Below, piece by piece: positions 31,075 through 61,817 of a stretch of DNA of 64,000 nucleotides. Positions within the stretch are counted from its first letter, which is position 1, and each line of letters begins with the position of its first letter. Origin of the DNA: an uncultured Clostridia bacterium (GTDB lineage: Bacteria > Bacillota > Clostridia > Oscillospirales > Ruminococcaceae). The notes below the pieces were generated by a model. That model saw only the letters and a program-made list of their open reading frames with translations. It was not told where the DNA came from and made no database searches. The stretch lies in contig CAMNNQ010000195.1 in NCBI GenBank assembly GCA_946545645.1, positions 17,133 through 81,132 on the forward strand, written 5' to 3'. A program made the translations under genes and the position numbers.

Positions 31075-31103
31075 TTGACAAATATAACAAAATGTGATAT
31101 AAT
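31075..31103 (+). promoter_or_regulatory. Promoter module copy 1 with embedded dyad
   Basis: TTGACA-N17-TATAAT; spacer contains ATATAACA-AAA-TGTGATAT (31082-31100). Confidence 0.8.
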
Positions 31104-31127
31104 ATAGTCAGTCAGAAAAAGTATAAC

Positions 31128-31170
31128 AAGTCCGGAGTTCCATAGCGGGAGCTCCGGGCTTTTCTTTTTG
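31128..31170 (+). terminator. Terminator-like hairpin shortly downstream of promoter copy 1
   Basis: TCCGGAGTTCC loop GGAGCTCCGGG then cttttcttttt. Confidence 0.75.
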
Positions 31171-31237
31171 ACGTATAAGTTTCCGTATGATTCCAATAAT
31201 ACAGGCGGAAGGATTTCCGCAGAAAGGAGAGGATGCC

Positions 31238-31381
31238 ATGAGCAGTAAGAAAACATCATCCGAGCTGGAGCTCAAAAAGAAGACGCTGGAGGCCTGGGCT
31301 AAGATACTGTATCGGGAGGGAAAGATAGACCTGAGCCGGTGCAACAGGATGATCGAGGCGATAGCAAAGTTAACGGCATAA
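31238..31381 (+). CDS. 47-aa small protein, paralog of 59859-60002
   Basis: MSSKKTSSELELKKKTLEAWAKILYREGKIDLSRCNRMIEAIAKLTA; RBS agaaaggaga. Confidence 0.75.
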   Translation: MSSKKTSSELELKKKTLEAWAKILYREGKIDLSRCNRMIEAIAKLTA

Positions 31382-31400
31382 GGAAAAGAGACAAATATAA

Positions 31401-31437
31401 GCCGCGCAGTCGGACAGGGCTGCGCGGCTTTGTCTTT
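31401..31437. terminator. Terminator after 47-aa ORF
   Basis: GCCGCGCAGtcggacaggg-CTGCGCGGCtttgtctttt. Confidence 0.8.
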
Positions 31438-31701
31438 TCGTTATGAAAGTTCTTCCAGCTTTGACCAGTCTATTTTCAGAGTCGCTGAATCGGCGGCGTA
31501 CTTCATTACCTTCCGGGAGGGGATAAGGTGCTCACTGTCGTCCTCGTCGGGGATGATCAGGTATGCCCCTTTCTTCTGCCCTATGTGATCATTATAATTT
31601 ATGCGGGGTCAAAAATCAATACCCGGGGAACAACTTGCAAGTCTGGGAGCATAGGATGCAGGGGAGGTGGGGTCGCCCGCAAAAATTTTTTCTCAAACCA
31701 C

Positions 31702-31730
31702 TTGACAAATATAACATTCTGTGATATTAT
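31702..31730 (+). promoter_or_regulatory. Promoter module copy 2 with embedded dyad
   Basis: TTGACA-N17-TATTAT; ATATAACA-TTC-TGTGATAT (31709-31727). Confidence 0.8.
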
Positions 31731-31754
31731 ATAGACAGTACAAATTTACTTTGA

Positions 31755-31795
31755 AGTCCGGAGTTTCTACCGCAAGGGAGCTCCGGGCTTTTTTG
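31755..31795 (+). terminator. Terminator-like hairpin shortly downstream of promoter copy 2
   Basis: agTCCGGAGTTTCtaccgcaaGGGAGCTCCGGGcttttttg. Confidence 0.75.
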
Positions 31796-32327
31796 CGTTA
31801 TAACAATTCAGAGGGTCGGCCACAGCGCCCTCTTTTATATAGATCTTCTCCCTCATGGGTGAAAACAAGACGGTTATAACTCAGCGAGAGCTGAGGTGTA
31901 ACCGGCTTGCAGAGATTTTCCGCGCTCCGTAAGTGCTCGGGGGCGGCTTCGGGAACGTTTCTGCGCAACGTTTCAGGGTACCGATTTATGACGGTAAACG
32001 GCACGCCATAAGTGCTTGGCGGTCGGATTGTTAAATTGAGTATTAAGACGGCGTAGTGAGCCCGTAAAAGGGTTGCGCCATTATAAAACTTGGCTGATGC
32101 TGTTTTATCATAGATTTTTGGCATCAGCGGTCATAAGCAGGACTTGAAAAGGCTTGAATGGTCAGGACTTGACCTTAAACGTCCGCGTCTTTGTGCTGAC
32201 GTAAAACTGCACTGCCCGCCGCCGGGAGAGGACCAACTCCCATTCCCGCTTTGAGGAAAAAACAATAGTGTTATGATTTGCGGCATTCGATTTAACAGTC
32301 CGAAATATCGTACAGGAGGAGATCCAT

Positions 32328-33386
32328 ATGAAAACACGCAACAAACAGCTGACCTATGCCCTGAGGGAGAATCTGGAAAGAATGACTGCTTACGGCGAGA
32401 GCAAGTATGCCTACCGTCAGCAGACCAACGAACTGCGCCGGAGAGCCAGGAACGAGCTGATCTGCCAGCACAAGACCCCGGAGGAGATCGAGAAGGCGCT
32501 GCTGCATATCGACGCAGCAAAGGACAAGATATTCAGCTACGGGACGATGCGCTCCTATATCAGATTTGTGGCGGATTTCGCCGCATTTGTTGCAGAGAAA
32601 ACGGGTACCTCCCGCACCTCTGTGGAGGACAGCGTGAAATATATACAGCCCTATGTGGACTACCTTATATATAGGTGCAACTCTCCGAACACCATAAACC
32701 TGAAACTCTCCGCTGTCTGCAAGGCCACCGGGCAATACGTTGTCGATTATACCCACCCGGAGCGCAGATATGCCGATGTGACAAGGGGAGTAAAAGCCGC
32801 TGTCCGGGATAAGTTCAACGAGCACCGCGCAGCAGAGGCATTGGAGCTCAACCGCGCCATAGGTCTCCGCAGGTCGGAGCTTGGCAGGGTAACTATATTC
32901 GATGTTTCCTGGGAGGGCGAGAAAAGCGCCACTATAAGGAGCATCGGCAAGGGCGGAAAGTGCAACGAGACCTATATCACAGACCCGGCAAAGCTGGATA
33001 TCCTTACGAAATACTATTGCGATGCTATTGCCGACGGCCGGGCAGATCTGCTGACAAAAGAGCAGATGCACCACGATGCAGACCTGCATCACGCGAGAGC
33101 GATGTGTGCGATAGATGAATACAGGCGTGTCATGTCGGAGATCAAAGATAATCCCGCGAAGCGTGAGGAGTATAAGAGGTTTATAGTGGAGTTCTTCGCA
33201 AAACACAACAAGCCACTGCGGGAGAACCTCGACAAGCCCTATTTTCTCCGCGGAGCAGGGAAGGCTATGCAGGAAAGCCGCGGGCGGGAGTTTAAGTTTG
33301 ACAGGGTGGCGGTTCTCTATGTCAGCGCAACTATACTGCACCATTTCAGGAGCGATACCACCGTACAGCATTATCTCATCAAGTGA
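32328..33386 (+). CDS. Divergent tyrosine recombinase-like protein
   Basis: AIGLRRSELGRVTIFDV (box I), HHARAMCAIDEYRR (degenerate HxxR), VSATILHHFRSDTTVQHYLIK (box III-like); RBS aggagga. Confidence 0.65.
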   Translation: MKTRNKQLTYALRENLERMTAYGESKYAYRQQTNELRRRARNELICQHKTPEEIEKALLHIDAAKDKIFSYGTMRSYIRFVADFAAFVAEKTGTSRTSVEDSVKYIQPYVDYLIYRCNSPNTINLKLSAVCKATGQYVVDYTHPERRYADVTRGVKAAVRDKFNEHRAAEALELNRAIGLRRSELGRVTIFDVSWEGEKSATIRSIGKGGKCNETYITDPAKLDILTKYYCDAIADGRADLLTKEQMHHDADLHHARAMCAIDEYRRVMSEIKDNPAKREEYKRFIVEFFAKHNKPLRENLDKPYFLRGAGKAMQESRGREFKFDRVAVLYVSATILHHFRSDTTVQHYLIK

Positions 33387-33448
33387 TATTTGTGAAAATA
33401 TCACAAAATGTGATATGGATGTTTGTGAAGAATTTTATCGCAGTGCTA

Positions 33449-33477
33449 TTGACAGATATAACAATTTGTGATATAAT
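33449..33477 (+). promoter_or_regulatory. Promoter module copy 3 with embedded dyad
   Basis: TTGACA-N17-TATAAT; ATATAACA-ATT-TGTGATAT (33456-33474). Confidence 0.8.
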
Positions 33478-33500
33478 TTACCTGTAAGCAAAAGTGTGAA

Positions 33501-33540
33501 AAGTACCGAGTTCCAAATTTGGGGCCCGGTATTTTTATTT
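33501..33540 (+). terminator. Terminator-like hairpin shortly downstream of promoter copy 3
   Basis: TACCGAGTTCCaaatttGGGGCCCGGTAtttttattttt; different stem sequence at same relative position. Confidence 0.65.
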
Positions 33541-33578
33541 TTGCTCCGAAATATGTAAAAGGGAGGTGGTTTGTCCTT

Positions 33579-33689
33579 ATGGGACAGCGCAGTAAAAGGG
33601 CGTATATGCGCCTGAAAGAAAAGCCGCTTACAGCGGCGGATAGTTTACGGATGAGGGATCCTTTCGGGGGGTCCCTCAAAATATTGTGA
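33579..33689 (+). CDS. Possible 36-aa basic leader peptide
   Basis: MGQRSKRAYMRLKEKPLTAADSLRMRDPFGGSLKIL, preceded by gggaggtgg; not in ORF track. Confidence 0.35.
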   Translation: MGQRSKRAYMRLKEKPLTAADSLRMRDPFGGSLKIL

Positions 33690-33710
33690 GATGAAAGGAG
33701 TTATGATGCT

Positions 33711-35249
33711 ATGAGCATAAGTATTTCTGCGCAGCTGAACGCTGCAAACATTGACAGAAAAAAGTGGGAGGCAGTCTTTGAAGACTGCAAAAAGATCGCT
33801 GAGGCGGGACAGTTTGCGGACATCGAGAGTGTGACCGTCCGCGGGGAGGAACTGGAATGTCTTGTGCCAGTCCGGGAGAAGGACGGTAAGCTGCATATCG
33901 TCGGAGACCTGATCCAGGGCAGATGTATTCAGGACTGTGAGCTTGAGCGCGACGTGACAAAGTATATCCTGAAAGGCGTAAAACCGCTGCCCGGAGTTCC
34001 GGTATCAGAGCACTTGTATATGTGCCTTTACAACGGGATCAGCGAATATGAGGAGTATTTCGTACCCTGTTTCGACACCGAGACCTTCGGGGCGCGTCCG
34101 CACATATATCTGCTGGCAATGGGGGTGCTGATAGCAAGCGAGTTCCCGGAGGCAGCCGTTGTGTACGGCGACATAACTCAGGGGCAGTGTCAGGAGGCTT
34201 GCCGTCTGATAAAAGAGGTCACGGGCAGAGATGCAAAAATGCCGATTCAGTATGACTGTATTCGCCTGTTTGATGCGTTCCGTGACAGGGGTCATACCGG
34301 CATCGAGCTGCTGGACAGGTTCCTGACGACATATAAAGGCGTCAGGACGGAAGAGGTTTGTGAGTTGCTGAAAAGCAACTTCTTTGAGGATGAATTTACG
34401 GAATATTTCAAGCGCCACAACACAGATGTGTTCGGGCTTGTCAAAGGGTGGCTGGAGCTGGGTCTGTCGCCGGAGGGACTTTGCAAAGCGTACCGGCAGT
34501 TTTGGAAAGGCTGCGATGCGAAGCAGCTTGTGGACTGCCTTATCCTCGGAAAAGTCCAAGTTAAGGAAAAATCCGAGCTGGAGCTTTACGACTTCACCAT
34601 ACCCTCGGAAATAACAGCGGACACCTCGGCAATGTCAAATGCGAGAAAAACCGCAGACGATATGGATTTTAGGCACCGTATCATCAACGCATATATCCCA
34701 CTGGAGGATATGAAAGCGGTCATCAGAAAGCACTTCCCGAATGAAAACATCGACCAGTTTTTTGCAGATGCTCTGGCTGGAAAGGGTCGCCGTTTCAAGA
34801 AGCAGCGGTTCATTGAGCTGATGTATTCGGTCATCGGTGAGGATGCTCTGAAAATGGATGAGCGCAATGCGGACATCATAGACCCTGAAAAGCTCTATAT
34901 GTGGGAGGGTGAAAACACCACCATAGACGAATACGTCATCGAGGAGATGAAAGAGGTACTGCGGCTAGTTCTGCTTGAAGGCAAACAGATCATCGAAAGG
35001 CATCGGCTCGATGACCGGGCAGGCAGAGAAGAATACATCAAAACACACCTGATAAATCGGATCGCTCTGCCGGTGGATGTGGCCGAAAGTATAATCGACC
35101 GCGCAGGCGAAGAAGACTCGACGCTGTATTTCGGGCTTATCGGGACAAATGTCTTTGACTTCTGGGTATCCCCGATAGTCAAGGCTGTGCTGATGGATCC
35201 GAAGCTGTACGACTATGTTTTGAAACTTATGAAGGAGGACAATCTATGA
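33711..35249 (+). CDS. 512-aa protein of unknown function
   Basis: Long ORF with RBS gaaaggag; coding-like composition; no family recognised. Confidence 0.85.
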   Translation: MSISISAQLNAANIDRKKWEAVFEDCKKIAEAGQFADIESVTVRGEELECLVPVREKDGKLHIVGDLIQGRCIQDCELERDVTKYILKGVKPLPGVPVSEHLYMCLYNGISEYEEYFVPCFDTETFGARPHIYLLAMGVLIASEFPEAAVVYGDITQGQCQEACRLIKEVTGRDAKMPIQYDCIRLFDAFRDRGHTGIELLDRFLTTYKGVRTEEVCELLKSNFFEDEFTEYFKRHNTDVFGLVKGWLELGLSPEGLCKAYRQFWKGCDAKQLVDCLILGKVQVKEKSELELYDFTIPSEITADTSAMSNARKTADDMDFRHRIINAYIPLEDMKAVIRKHFPNENIDQFFADALAGKGRRFKKQRFIELMYSVIGEDALKMDERNADIIDPEKLYMWEGENTTIDEYVIEEMKEVLRLVLLEGKQIIERHRLDDRAGREEYIKTHLINRIALPVDVAESIIDRAGEEDSTLYFGLIGTNVFDFWVSPIVKAVLMDPKLYDYVLKLMKEDNL

Positions 35250-35518
35250 TCGAAAAAAAGGTGAACAAGGAAAAAGAGCAGGAACAGGGGTTATTCCCGA
35301 AAGCGGATCTTGACGAACTGGAGAAAGTATATCTTGAAATTGCCGACCGGGTCAGGAAGCTGGAAAGCCACCTGATATTCAATTTCGTTGACAAGACGCC
35401 GAAGCTCCGTGAATACCTGATGGAGCAGATCAGACTGATGTCGGTGGTGGGACACTATGAGTTTGCGCTCGGTTTCAAGGCCGGCGCAAGGCTGATGAGT
35501 GAATTGCTCAAGGAATAA
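35246..35518 (+). CDS. DUF6809-like small protein
   Basis: LESHLIFNFVDKTPKLREYLMEQIRLMSVVGHYEFALGFKAGARLMSELL; overlaps upstream stop (ATGA). Confidence 0.65.
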   Translation: MIEKKVNKEKEQEQGLFPKADLDELEKVYLEIADRVRKLESHLIFNFVDKTPKLREYLMEQIRLMSVVGHYEFALGFKAGARLMSELLKE

Positions 35519-35523
35519 GAACG

Positions 35524-35556
35524 GCGGCTGCATCTGGGACGGTGCAGCCGCTTTTT
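35524..35556. terminator. Terminator after DUF6809-like gene
   Basis: GCGGCTGCAtctgggacggTGCAGCCGCtttttc. Confidence 0.85.
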
Positions 35557-35744: not shown

Positions 35745-35775
35745 TTGACAAAAAGCGGCTATTGTGTTATTATTA
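35745..35775 (+). promoter_or_regulatory. Promoter of polysaccharide locus
   Basis: cTTGACAaaaagcggctattgtgtTATTATtaa, 17-bp spacer (coordinates approximate). Confidence 0.65.
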
Positions 35776-36011
35776 AATGGTGTGAGTATGCCCATTTATA
35801 ATAGGTGCAGCTCCTGTCAGCCTGGTTTCGCAGGATAGAGAGTTTTACGAGAAGTGGAATGGTTTAGGGCGGTTCTTTCTGCTCTGTGCGGATCATATTA
35901 AAGGGCGTAAGCTGCCATCGTGGCAGCAGCTATATAAATCCTACCTCAGCTGTCCTGTGCCGTTTGCAAGGCGGCACAGGGCGGTTGGAGGAATGAAAAG
36001 GAACGATTAAA

Positions 36012-59858: not shown

Positions 59859-60002
59859 ATGAAAGCAATTACAGTTGACCCTCAACTCGACCTCAAAAAA
59901 CAGACCCTCACCGCCTGGGTTTTCATCCTGTATAGGGAAGGCCTCATCGATCTCTCTCGTTGCAACAAAATGATCTCTGCTATCAATGCTCTTCGTAGCT
60001 GA
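59859..60002 (+). CDS. 47-aa small protein, paralog of 31238-31381
   Basis: MKAITVDPQLDLKKQTLTAWVFILYREGLIDLSRCNKMISAINALRS; RBS gaaaggagg; absent from ORF track. Confidence 0.75.
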   Translation: MKAITVDPQLDLKKQTLTAWVFILYREGLIDLSRCNKMISAINALRS

Positions 60003-60056
60003 ACCACCCCTCTCAGCGAGTCCTCGAGCCGTCTCCGTCGGGCGGCTCATTTCAAC

Positions 60057-60085
60057 TTGACAAACCAACACCGGTATGGTATAAT
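60057..60085 (+). promoter_or_regulatory. Promoter of serine recombinase gene
   Basis: TTGACA-N17-TATAAT. Confidence 0.75.
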
Positions 60086-60116
60086 CATATCATAACAACG
60101 AAAGCGAGGCACGCCT

Positions 60117-61817
60117 ATGGATATATATGAGACCGCCCGCCGCATGAAAGAAGAGCGCAAGACTATCTTTGACCTCGATCTCCGGGTCACATTCTACGCC
60201 CGTGTGTCATCGAAAAAGGACGAGCAGGAGAACTCCCTTGAAAATCAGATAATGTACTTTTCAGAGCTTATAAAAAACAACCCCCGCTGGACGTATATCG
60301 ACGGCTACGTTGACCGCATCCGCGGCGAGGCGGCGTCCAACCGTCCCAACTTTCAGCGAATGATTGATGACGGCAAAGCGGGAGCATTTGATCTCGTCCT
60401 CACCAAGGAGGTCAGCCGCTTTGCACGCAATACGGTGGATGGCCTGATCGTCACCCGTGAACTGCTGCGGTCAGGGGTCGGAGTGTTCTTTCAGAACGAC
60501 AACCTCTGCACCATTGACACCGATGCCGAGCTGCGCCTGACCATAATGCTCGCTATCGCCACCGATGAGGTCCGCAAGCTCTCCGAGCGTGTCCGCTGGG
60601 GACATAAGCGCTCTATCGAGAGCGGGAAGGTGCTTGGCAATAACCGCATCTTCGGCTACGATAAGGAAGACGGCCGCCTCGTCATCAACGAGCCGGAGGC
60701 CGAAATGGTGCGGCTGATCTTCGAGCTCTATTCCACCGGTCAGTACAGCTCCCGAAAGATCGAGAAGATCCTCTATGACAAGGGCTACCGCGGCCGAGAG
60801 GGGACACGTATACACCACAACACGATCAACGGCATCATCCAGAACCCGAAATATAAGGGCTGGTACTGCGGCAATAAGGTCAAGGTCATCGACCACCGCA
60901 CCCGCGAGCAGCGCTTTCTGCCGGAGGACGAATGGGTGCTCTATAAGGACGAAACAGGCGAGAGCGTTCCGGCTATCGTCACCGAGGAGCTTTGGGAGAG
61001 AGCCAACGCGATCTTCCGGGAGCGCAGCGGCGAGATCAAGAGCCGCACCCGCTCGTTCAAGGACAAGAGCGTCTTTACAGGCAAGATATGGTGCCGCGCC
61101 CACGATGTACCCTATTGGCGCACAAGCTATTCCAACTCTGTCTCGCAGCATAAGCCGGTCTATCAGTGGATTTGCTCCGAGAAGAAACGCTCCGTAGCCA
61201 GAGCCTGCTCTTCCTTCGCGATAATGGAGGATGACCTCTACAAAATGCTCTCCGACCACTTCAAGCTGGTGGCCGGGAACATCGAGGAATACGTTGCGGA
61301 GTTCCTGCGCATCTATAAAGAGACCAACACCGAGGTCAATACCCAGCGGCAGATCAACGAGCTCAAAGTCAAGCTGGATAAGGAAAAAGCCAAGCGAGAA
61401 AAGCTCCTTGACCTCTATACCGAGGAAATGATCTCCAAGCAGGAGTTCAAGTCCCGCAACGACAGCGCCAATGTCCTTATCTCACAGCTGGAGGAGGACA
61501 TCCACTCCCTCGAAGCAGTTGCTGCGGAGAAGTCGGACTACGCCTCCGAGCTTGCAAAGATCGAGCAGTACTTCAAAACGATGTACAGCCCCGAGGGGGA
61601 TATGACTCGAGAGCAGGTGGACGAGCTTGCCCGCACCATCATCGACAGGATAGACGTCGTCCCGATCAACAAGAACTCCATGAAGCTGGAAATAAAGCTG
61701 AAAACCGGCCTTTCCACCGATTTTTCCTACGTCCGGGCAGGGGAGAGATACGCCCGGCGTTCCGGACAGATCACCAAGAAGATGATCGATTCCTACAAGC
61801 AGCAGGGCAGAAACTAA
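60117..61817 (+). CDS. Large serine recombinase
   Basis: VTFYARVSSKKDEQENSLENQIMYF; VLTKEVSRFARNTVDGLIVTRELLRSGVGVFFQNDNL; recombinase and zinc-ribbon-like regions followed by coiled coil. Confidence 0.97.
   Translation: MDIYETARRMKEERKTIFDLDLRVTFYARVSSKKDEQENSLENQIMYFSELIKNNPRWTYIDGYVDRIRGEAASNRPNFQRMIDDGKAGAFDLVLTKEVSRFARNTVDGLIVTRELLRSGVGVFFQNDNLCTIDTDAELRLTIMLAIATDEVRKLSERVRWGHKRSIESGKVLGNNRIFGYDKEDGRLVINEPEAEMVRLIFELYSTGQYSSRKIEKILYDKGYRGREGTRIHHNTINGIIQNPKYKGWYCGNKVKVIDHRTREQRFLPEDEWVLYKDETGESVPAIVTEELWERANAIFRERSGEIKSRTRSFKDKSVFTGKIWCRAHDVPYWRTSYSNSVSQHKPVYQWICSEKKRSVARACSSFAIMEDDLYKMLSDHFKLVAGNIEEYVAEFLRIYKETNTEVNTQRQINELKVKLDKEKAKREKLLDLYTEEMISKQEFKSRNDSANVLISQLEEDIHSLEAVAAEKSDYASELAKIEQYFKTMYSPEGDMTREQVDELARTIIDRIDVVPINKNSMKLEIKLKTGLSTDFSYVRAGERYARRSGQITKKMIDSYKQQGRN

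What the first reader, a model, noticed from the sequence alone, without database searches (positions are those of the whole stretch)
31075..33540. Three near-identical dyad-containing promoters, each followed by a position-conserved terminator hairpin
At 31075, 31702 and 33449 there are promoters TTGACA-N17-TATAAT/TATTAT whose spacers all carry ATATAACA-NNN-TGTGATAT. The 8-nt arms are identical in all three copies while the central 3 nt vary (AAA, TTC, ATT). Spacers are not normally conserved, so this looks like an operator. Each is followed about 25 nt after the -10 by a hairpin plus T-run; copies 1 and 2 share a CCGGAG/CTCCGG stem, while copy 3 has a different but still paired stem (TACCG.../...CGGTA). 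This suggests one repressor controlling three units, each giving a short terminated RNA or an attenuated leader. TGTGATATAAT alone could be an extended -10, but the left arm is not explained that way.
Basis: partly seen in the sequence, partly recalled or inferred. Interest (0 to 1): 0.75.

Follow-up and report, generated by a model that had tools for sequence, protein, structure and literature searches.

The report
Operator-promoters with built-in terminators in mobile DNA
A small mobile stretch of DNA in a gut-type bacterium starts its genes from near-identical switchable promoters, each followed at once by a stop signal, and its recombinase gene is also preceded by a long folded RNA not found in the RNA family database; this looks like a multiple lock on a DNA-moving enzyme.

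Summary
Three exact ATATAACA-NNN-TGTGATAT dyads lie in TTGACA-N17-TATAAT/TATTAT promoters at 31075, 31702 and 33449, each followed ~25 nt after the -10 by an intrinsic-terminator hairpin. I add a perfect palindrome 58 bp upstream of copy 3, and a fourth dyad-plus-hairpin on the same contig outside the window. In other Clostridia the same dyad, in the same promoter register, sits at XRE-family regulator genes, so an operator reading is well supported; the repressor here was not found. Copies 2 and 3 drive the two operons of a mobile module (31683-35554): a tyrosine recombinase, then a 512-aa protein with a DUF6809-like protein. In another genus the module keeps promoter plus terminator, with strong stem covariation, but mostly loses the dyad: the terminator is the more widely conserved feature. 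No other consensus promoter precedes these genes, so I favour repressible, attenuated leaders over separate small-RNA genes, which remain possible. Unexpectedly, the ~530 nt between terminator 2 and the recombinase is a conserved, strongly folding leader, not in Rfam, found only with this recombinase family (7 of 398 family genomes).

The parts
31683..35554 (+). Mobile module shared with G284 at 84-87% identity, with different flanks: two transcription units
   Evidence: blastn blocks window 31683-33387 and 33396-35554 against L016 10679-8961 and 8818-6666; flank comparison
31075..31103 (+). Promoter copy 1 with dyad 31082-31100
31128..31161 (+). Terminator hairpin of copy 1 plus T-run; an outer stem pairs the 5' leader with the sequence after the T-run
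31238..31381 (+). 47-aa ORF (p47) downstream of copy 1; paralogue lies beside a serine recombinase at 59859
   Evidence: ORF and tblastn 60% identity
31702..31730 (+). Promoter copy 2 with dyad 31709-31727, driving the recombinase unit
   Evidence: conserved in G284
31753..31791 (+). Terminator hairpin of copy 2
   Evidence: conserved across two genera
31796..32327 (+). Structured 5' leader RNA of the recombinase: GGUUA/UAACC hairpin near 31866-31910, UAAGNGCU-loop hairpins near 31921-31945 and 32000-32025, 3' domain 32218-32284
   Evidence: alignments, fold z -5.1, stem covariation, model R2
32328..33386 (+). 352-aa tyrosine recombinase with conserved R-K-H-R-H-Y residues
   Evidence: Pfam and NCBIfam weak hits, alignment, Foldseek to Cre
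33398..33416 (.). Perfect palindromic operator ATATCACAAAATGTGATAT, 58 bp upstream of the copy 3 dyad
   Evidence: spacing kept in G284 (59 bp)
33449..33477 (+). Promoter copy 3 with dyad 33456-33474
33502..33533 (+). Terminator hairpin of copy 3 (different, still paired stem)
33711..35249 (+). 512-aa protein of unknown function (p512), downstream of copy 3
   Evidence: no Pfam, PHROGs or PADLOC hit and no NCBIfam hit near its cut-off; homologues in two genera
35246..35518 (+). DUF6809-like 90-aa protein
   Evidence: Pfam E 1.4e-4, below the gathering score
35523..35552 (+). Terminator that ends the second unit and the module

Best explanation
The dyad is an operator placed between -35 and -10, so a dimeric XRE (Cro/CI-type) repressor bound there would block RNA polymerase at the promoters of a small mobile module and its neighbours. 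When repression lifts, transcription starts about 7 nt after the -10 but meets a strong intrinsic terminator within about 60 nt, so most transcripts end as short hairpin RNAs and only read-through reaches the recombinase or p512. The recombinase message then carries a further ~530-nt folded leader up to its ribosome-binding site, probably a third control layer. Shown here: sequence anatomy, stem covariation, conservation, operator-like recurrence at XRE genes. Inferred: repressor class, repression, termination, regulated read-through, leader function.
For: Dyad arms are invariant while the central triplet varies. The dyad also occurs without a promoter (33398 and L016:15483) and with conserved 58-59 bp spacing to copy 3. 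The same promoter-dyad sits at XRE HTH genes in 6 of 7 other loci found in a scan of 85,462 species, with HTH_3 or HTH_26 confirmed. The terminator stem covaries across 15 copies. The three copies and the downstream 35745 promoter are the only plus-strand matches of 11/12 or better in 30.9-36.05 kb, so no other such match precedes these genes. Leader: fold z -5.1, -3.9, -5.4, covarying hairpins, model R2 strong hits only in genomes with this recombinase or its remnant.
Against: No XRE gene in the genome was found to carry this operator, and none could be tied to it. The dyad is largely missing in the other genus although the module is kept there. No antitermination or alternative fold was identified. 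Promoter-terminator units without a gene exist (L015:6886, the G284 tandem array), which suits small-RNA genes better. No expression data.
Confidence: 0.55

Rival explanations
1. The promoter-terminator units are independent small-RNA genes (about 65-nt hairpin RNAs acting in trans), controlled by the same repressor; downstream genes use other promoters.
For: Very stable self-contained hairpins with an outer stem; orphan units at L015:6886 and G231:C24:33134; three tandem units about 340 bp apart in G284 ahead of excisionase-like genes.
Against: Units stand in front of genes in the modules of both genera, and no other strong promoter precedes those genes in the window.
Confidence: 0.27
2. The dyads are binding or crossover sites of the encoded tyrosine recombinase rather than repressor operators.
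For: Several sites flank the recombinase gene, and inverted arms with a variable centre resemble recombinase sites.
Against: The arms come within 3 bp, whereas tyrosine recombinases use 6-8 bp crossovers (general knowledge). Recombinases 68-70% identical lack the dyad nearby, apart from one near-copy. The same dyad occurs at XRE genes in unrelated elements.
Confidence: 0.07
3. The similarity reflects duplication of a strong promoter with an extended -10, without operator function.
For: TGTGATATAAT fits an extended -10, and an upstream A/T tract is shared by copies 1 and 2.
Against: The left arm is invariant while other positions vary. Palindromes occur with no promoter (33398, L016:15483), and copy 4 keeps both arms although its promoter decayed.
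Confidence: 0.08

Closest known systems
XRE (Cro/CI-type) repressor-operator circuits of phages and mobile elements
   Same: Palindromic site overlapping the promoter of mobile-element genes; the identical dyad occurs at XRE genes in other Clostridia
   Different: No cognate repressor gene found near these copies, and each promoter is followed by a terminator
Transcription attenuation leaders of mobile elements (for example Tn916 tet(M), from memory)
   Same: Promoter, then terminator hairpin, then gene
   Different: No leader peptide seen in the window copies, and no antiterminator fold identified
Cre/XerD-type tyrosine recombinases
   Same: R-K-H-R-H-Y residues; top Foldseek hits are Cre
   Different: Below Pfam and NCBIfam family cut-offs; carried with a structured leader RNA
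Structured RNAs encoded upstream of recombinases or transposases (IS110 bridge RNA, from memory)
   Same: Long folded RNA just upstream of the recombinase gene
   Different: Enzyme is a tyrosine recombinase; no evidence that the RNA contacts the enzyme or DNA; no Rfam match

Membership tests
XRE repressor operator | Palindromic site at a promoter, recurring at several controlled promoters | tested here: met
XRE repressor operator | Same site at XRE regulator genes | tested here: met
   6 of 7 other loci elsewhere, two of them close relatives; not in this genome
XRE repressor operator | Cognate repressor identified and binding shown | tested here: inconclusive
   32 HTH_3 matches in the genome; the four on this contig lack the dyad in their upstream regions; binding needs experiment
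Transcription attenuator leader | Intrinsic terminator between promoter and gene, structure conserved | tested here: met
Transcription attenuator leader | Alternative antiterminator fold or leader peptide | tested here: inconclusive
   None seen in the window; a mini-ORF MSSEFL overlaps the terminator in G194 and G114 unit 2
Tyrosine recombinase | Catalytic R, K, HxxR, H, Y | tested here: met
   Invariant in six homologues; Cre fold hits from a moderate-confidence model
Tyrosine recombinase crossover site | 6-8 bp crossover between inverted arms | tested here: not met
   Arms separated by 3 bp
Any Rfam RNA family | Score above gathering cut-off | tested here: not met
   0 hits at gathering; only one chance-level hit, elsewhere, at E up to 1

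The most novel reading that the evidence does not exclude
The ~530-nt leader is a new class of structured RNA dedicated to a tyrosine recombinase family, acting with the enzyme (as cofactor or recognition RNA) or as a dedicated switch, rather than being a passive untranslated region.
Probability: 0.15. Interest if true: 0.85.

Novelty: new variant of a known kind. Interest (0 to 1): 0.5.

Why it matters
It describes a layered lock (operator, terminator, long folded leader) on a tyrosine recombinase in a family of Clostridia. It also names a concrete, searchable RNA leader absent from Rfam that travels with that recombinase. Either would open a testable route to how such poorly characterised mobile modules are kept silent.

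Tried and rejected
Recombinase crossover-site reading rejected (spacing, and absence in homologues). Known-RNA reading rejected (Rfam). Defence-system reading of p512 not supported (PADLOC); its AlphaFold model was too poor to search. More distant recombinase relatives (order level) lack the leader and show no convincing promoter-terminator unit. Candidate repressors on the contig (window 22985, 3970, 4985, 58206) and the G284 XRE gene carry no such operator. Literature searches found nothing relevant. A plasmid search with copy 1 found nothing.

Full report
Observation. The three promoter dyads are exact and at the stated places. They are 12/12, 11/12 and 12/12 matches to TTGACA-N17-TATAAT with an extended -10. 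The triplets at the centre are AAA, TTC and ATT. In the whole genome (3.3 Mb, 203 contigs) a fourth exact copy exists 41 kb upstream on the same contig (G000:C195:6886) and nowhere else. It has both arms and the same AGTCCGGAG hairpin, but a decayed -35 and -10. A perfect palindrome, ATATCACAAAATGTGATAT, sits at 33398-33416 between the recombinase stop codon and promoter 3 with no promoter of its own.

Hairpins. Each promoter is followed by a stem of about 14-16 pairs plus a T-run. In copies 1 and 3 an outer stem also pairs the first transcribed bases with the sequence after the T-run. I aligned 15 such units from seven genomes. The 14-bp stem is 91% paired, no slid version exceeds 55%, and six pairs show changes on both sides. 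Copy 3's different stem is therefore genuine compensation.

What the units belong to. Window 31683-35554 matches genome G284 (same genus) at 84-87% with unrelated flanks on both sides, so it behaves as a mobile module. Unit 1 is promoter 2, terminator, long leader, 352-aa recombinase. Unit 2 is promoter 3, terminator, p512, DUF6809-like protein. Four genomes of a second genus carry recombinases 68-70% identical. Three of them have unit-2-type genes, and one has the second unit duplicated. The recombinase keeps R, K, HxxR, H and Y in all six complete homologues, and its moderately confident model matches Cre. Copy 1 precedes a 47-aa ORF whose 60%-identical paralogue lies directly upstream of a large serine recombinase at 60117-61814.

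Operator. A scan of 85,462 species for the dyad in exact promoter register gave eight loci. One is G284 itself. Of the other seven, six lie at genes for XRE HTH proteins, confirmed as HTH_3 or HTH_26; two of these six are close relatives of each other. The seventh lies near a contig end, ahead of a 5S rRNA-like sequence (my reading of the sequence, not tested). I saw no terminator hairpin between promoter and gene at the XRE loci. This supports a Cro/CI-type operator reading, and the promoter-free palindromes and the conserved 58-59 bp spacing upstream of copy 3 add to it. The repressor was not found. The genome has 32 HTH_3 matches, and the four on this contig lack the dyad upstream.

What is conserved. 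In the second genus the dyad is gone or reduced to one near-copy (G194 unit 2, one mismatch to the relaxed pattern), while promoter and terminator remain at similar spacing. The promoter-terminator pair is thus the more widely kept feature, and the operator is lineage-specific. A model of the unit found further instances: two in G231 with the dyad, one in G231 without it, and three tandem copies about 340 bp apart in G284 without it.

Attenuator or small RNA. On the plus strand from 30.9 to 36.05 kb, only the three copies and the downstream promoter at 35745 score 11/12 or better. So the recombinase and p512 have no other obvious promoter, which favours attenuated leaders. Orphan and tandem units keep the small-RNA reading alive.

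The leader RNA. Between terminator 2 and the recombinase start lie about 530 nt that are conserved in seven genomes of two genera. The RNA folds far better than shuffles in three tested members (z -5.1, -3.9, -5.4). A GGUUA/UAACC hairpin has a lower stem that changes in a paired way (CAAG/CUUG, CAAAC/GUUUG, AUAUC/GAUAU). Hairpins with a UAAGNGCU-type loop keep pairing with different stems. The 3' domain is closed by GCCGC/GCGGC and contains an AGGACCAA loop and an invariant AACAAUAGUGUU hairpin; covariation within this domain alone is weak because it hardly varies. A model of it hits exactly the seven genomes with this recombinase or its remnant among 398 in the family (E at most 2e-18; two marginal hits at 0.003); six of these seven, plus the G231 remnant, supplied the model, so the result shows absence elsewhere rather than independent confirmation. 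Rfam has no match. In G231 the leader survives although the recombinase is truncated.

Verdict. The structured recombinase leader is the most novel element, and its function is open.

Noticed in passing
window 31796-32327: Conserved, strongly folding ~530-nt leader before the recombinase gene with repeated UAAGNGCU-loop hairpins; no Rfam match.
   Followed up: yes
window 35745-36010: Consensus promoter and leader with two hairpins ahead of an apparent exopolysaccharide operon; 108 bp of it is 92% identical in G284 (L016:446-553).
   Followed up: partly
window 59859-61814: Paralogue of the 47-aa ORF directly upstream of a large serine recombinase; the same pairing occurs in G114 (L053:7617), so the small protein may assist serine recombinases.
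   Followed up: partly
L016:14080-14847: Three tandem promoter-terminator units about 340 bp apart ahead of excisionase-like and integrase genes in G284.
   Followed up: partly
L051:1760 and 7500; L048:7028: A mini-ORF MSSEFL with a GGAG ribosome-binding sequence overlaps the terminator 5' arm in the second genus, suggesting translation-coupled attenuation there.
   Followed up: no
L023:250: The same dyad-promoter lies just upstream of a 5S rRNA-like sequence near a contig end.
   Followed up: no
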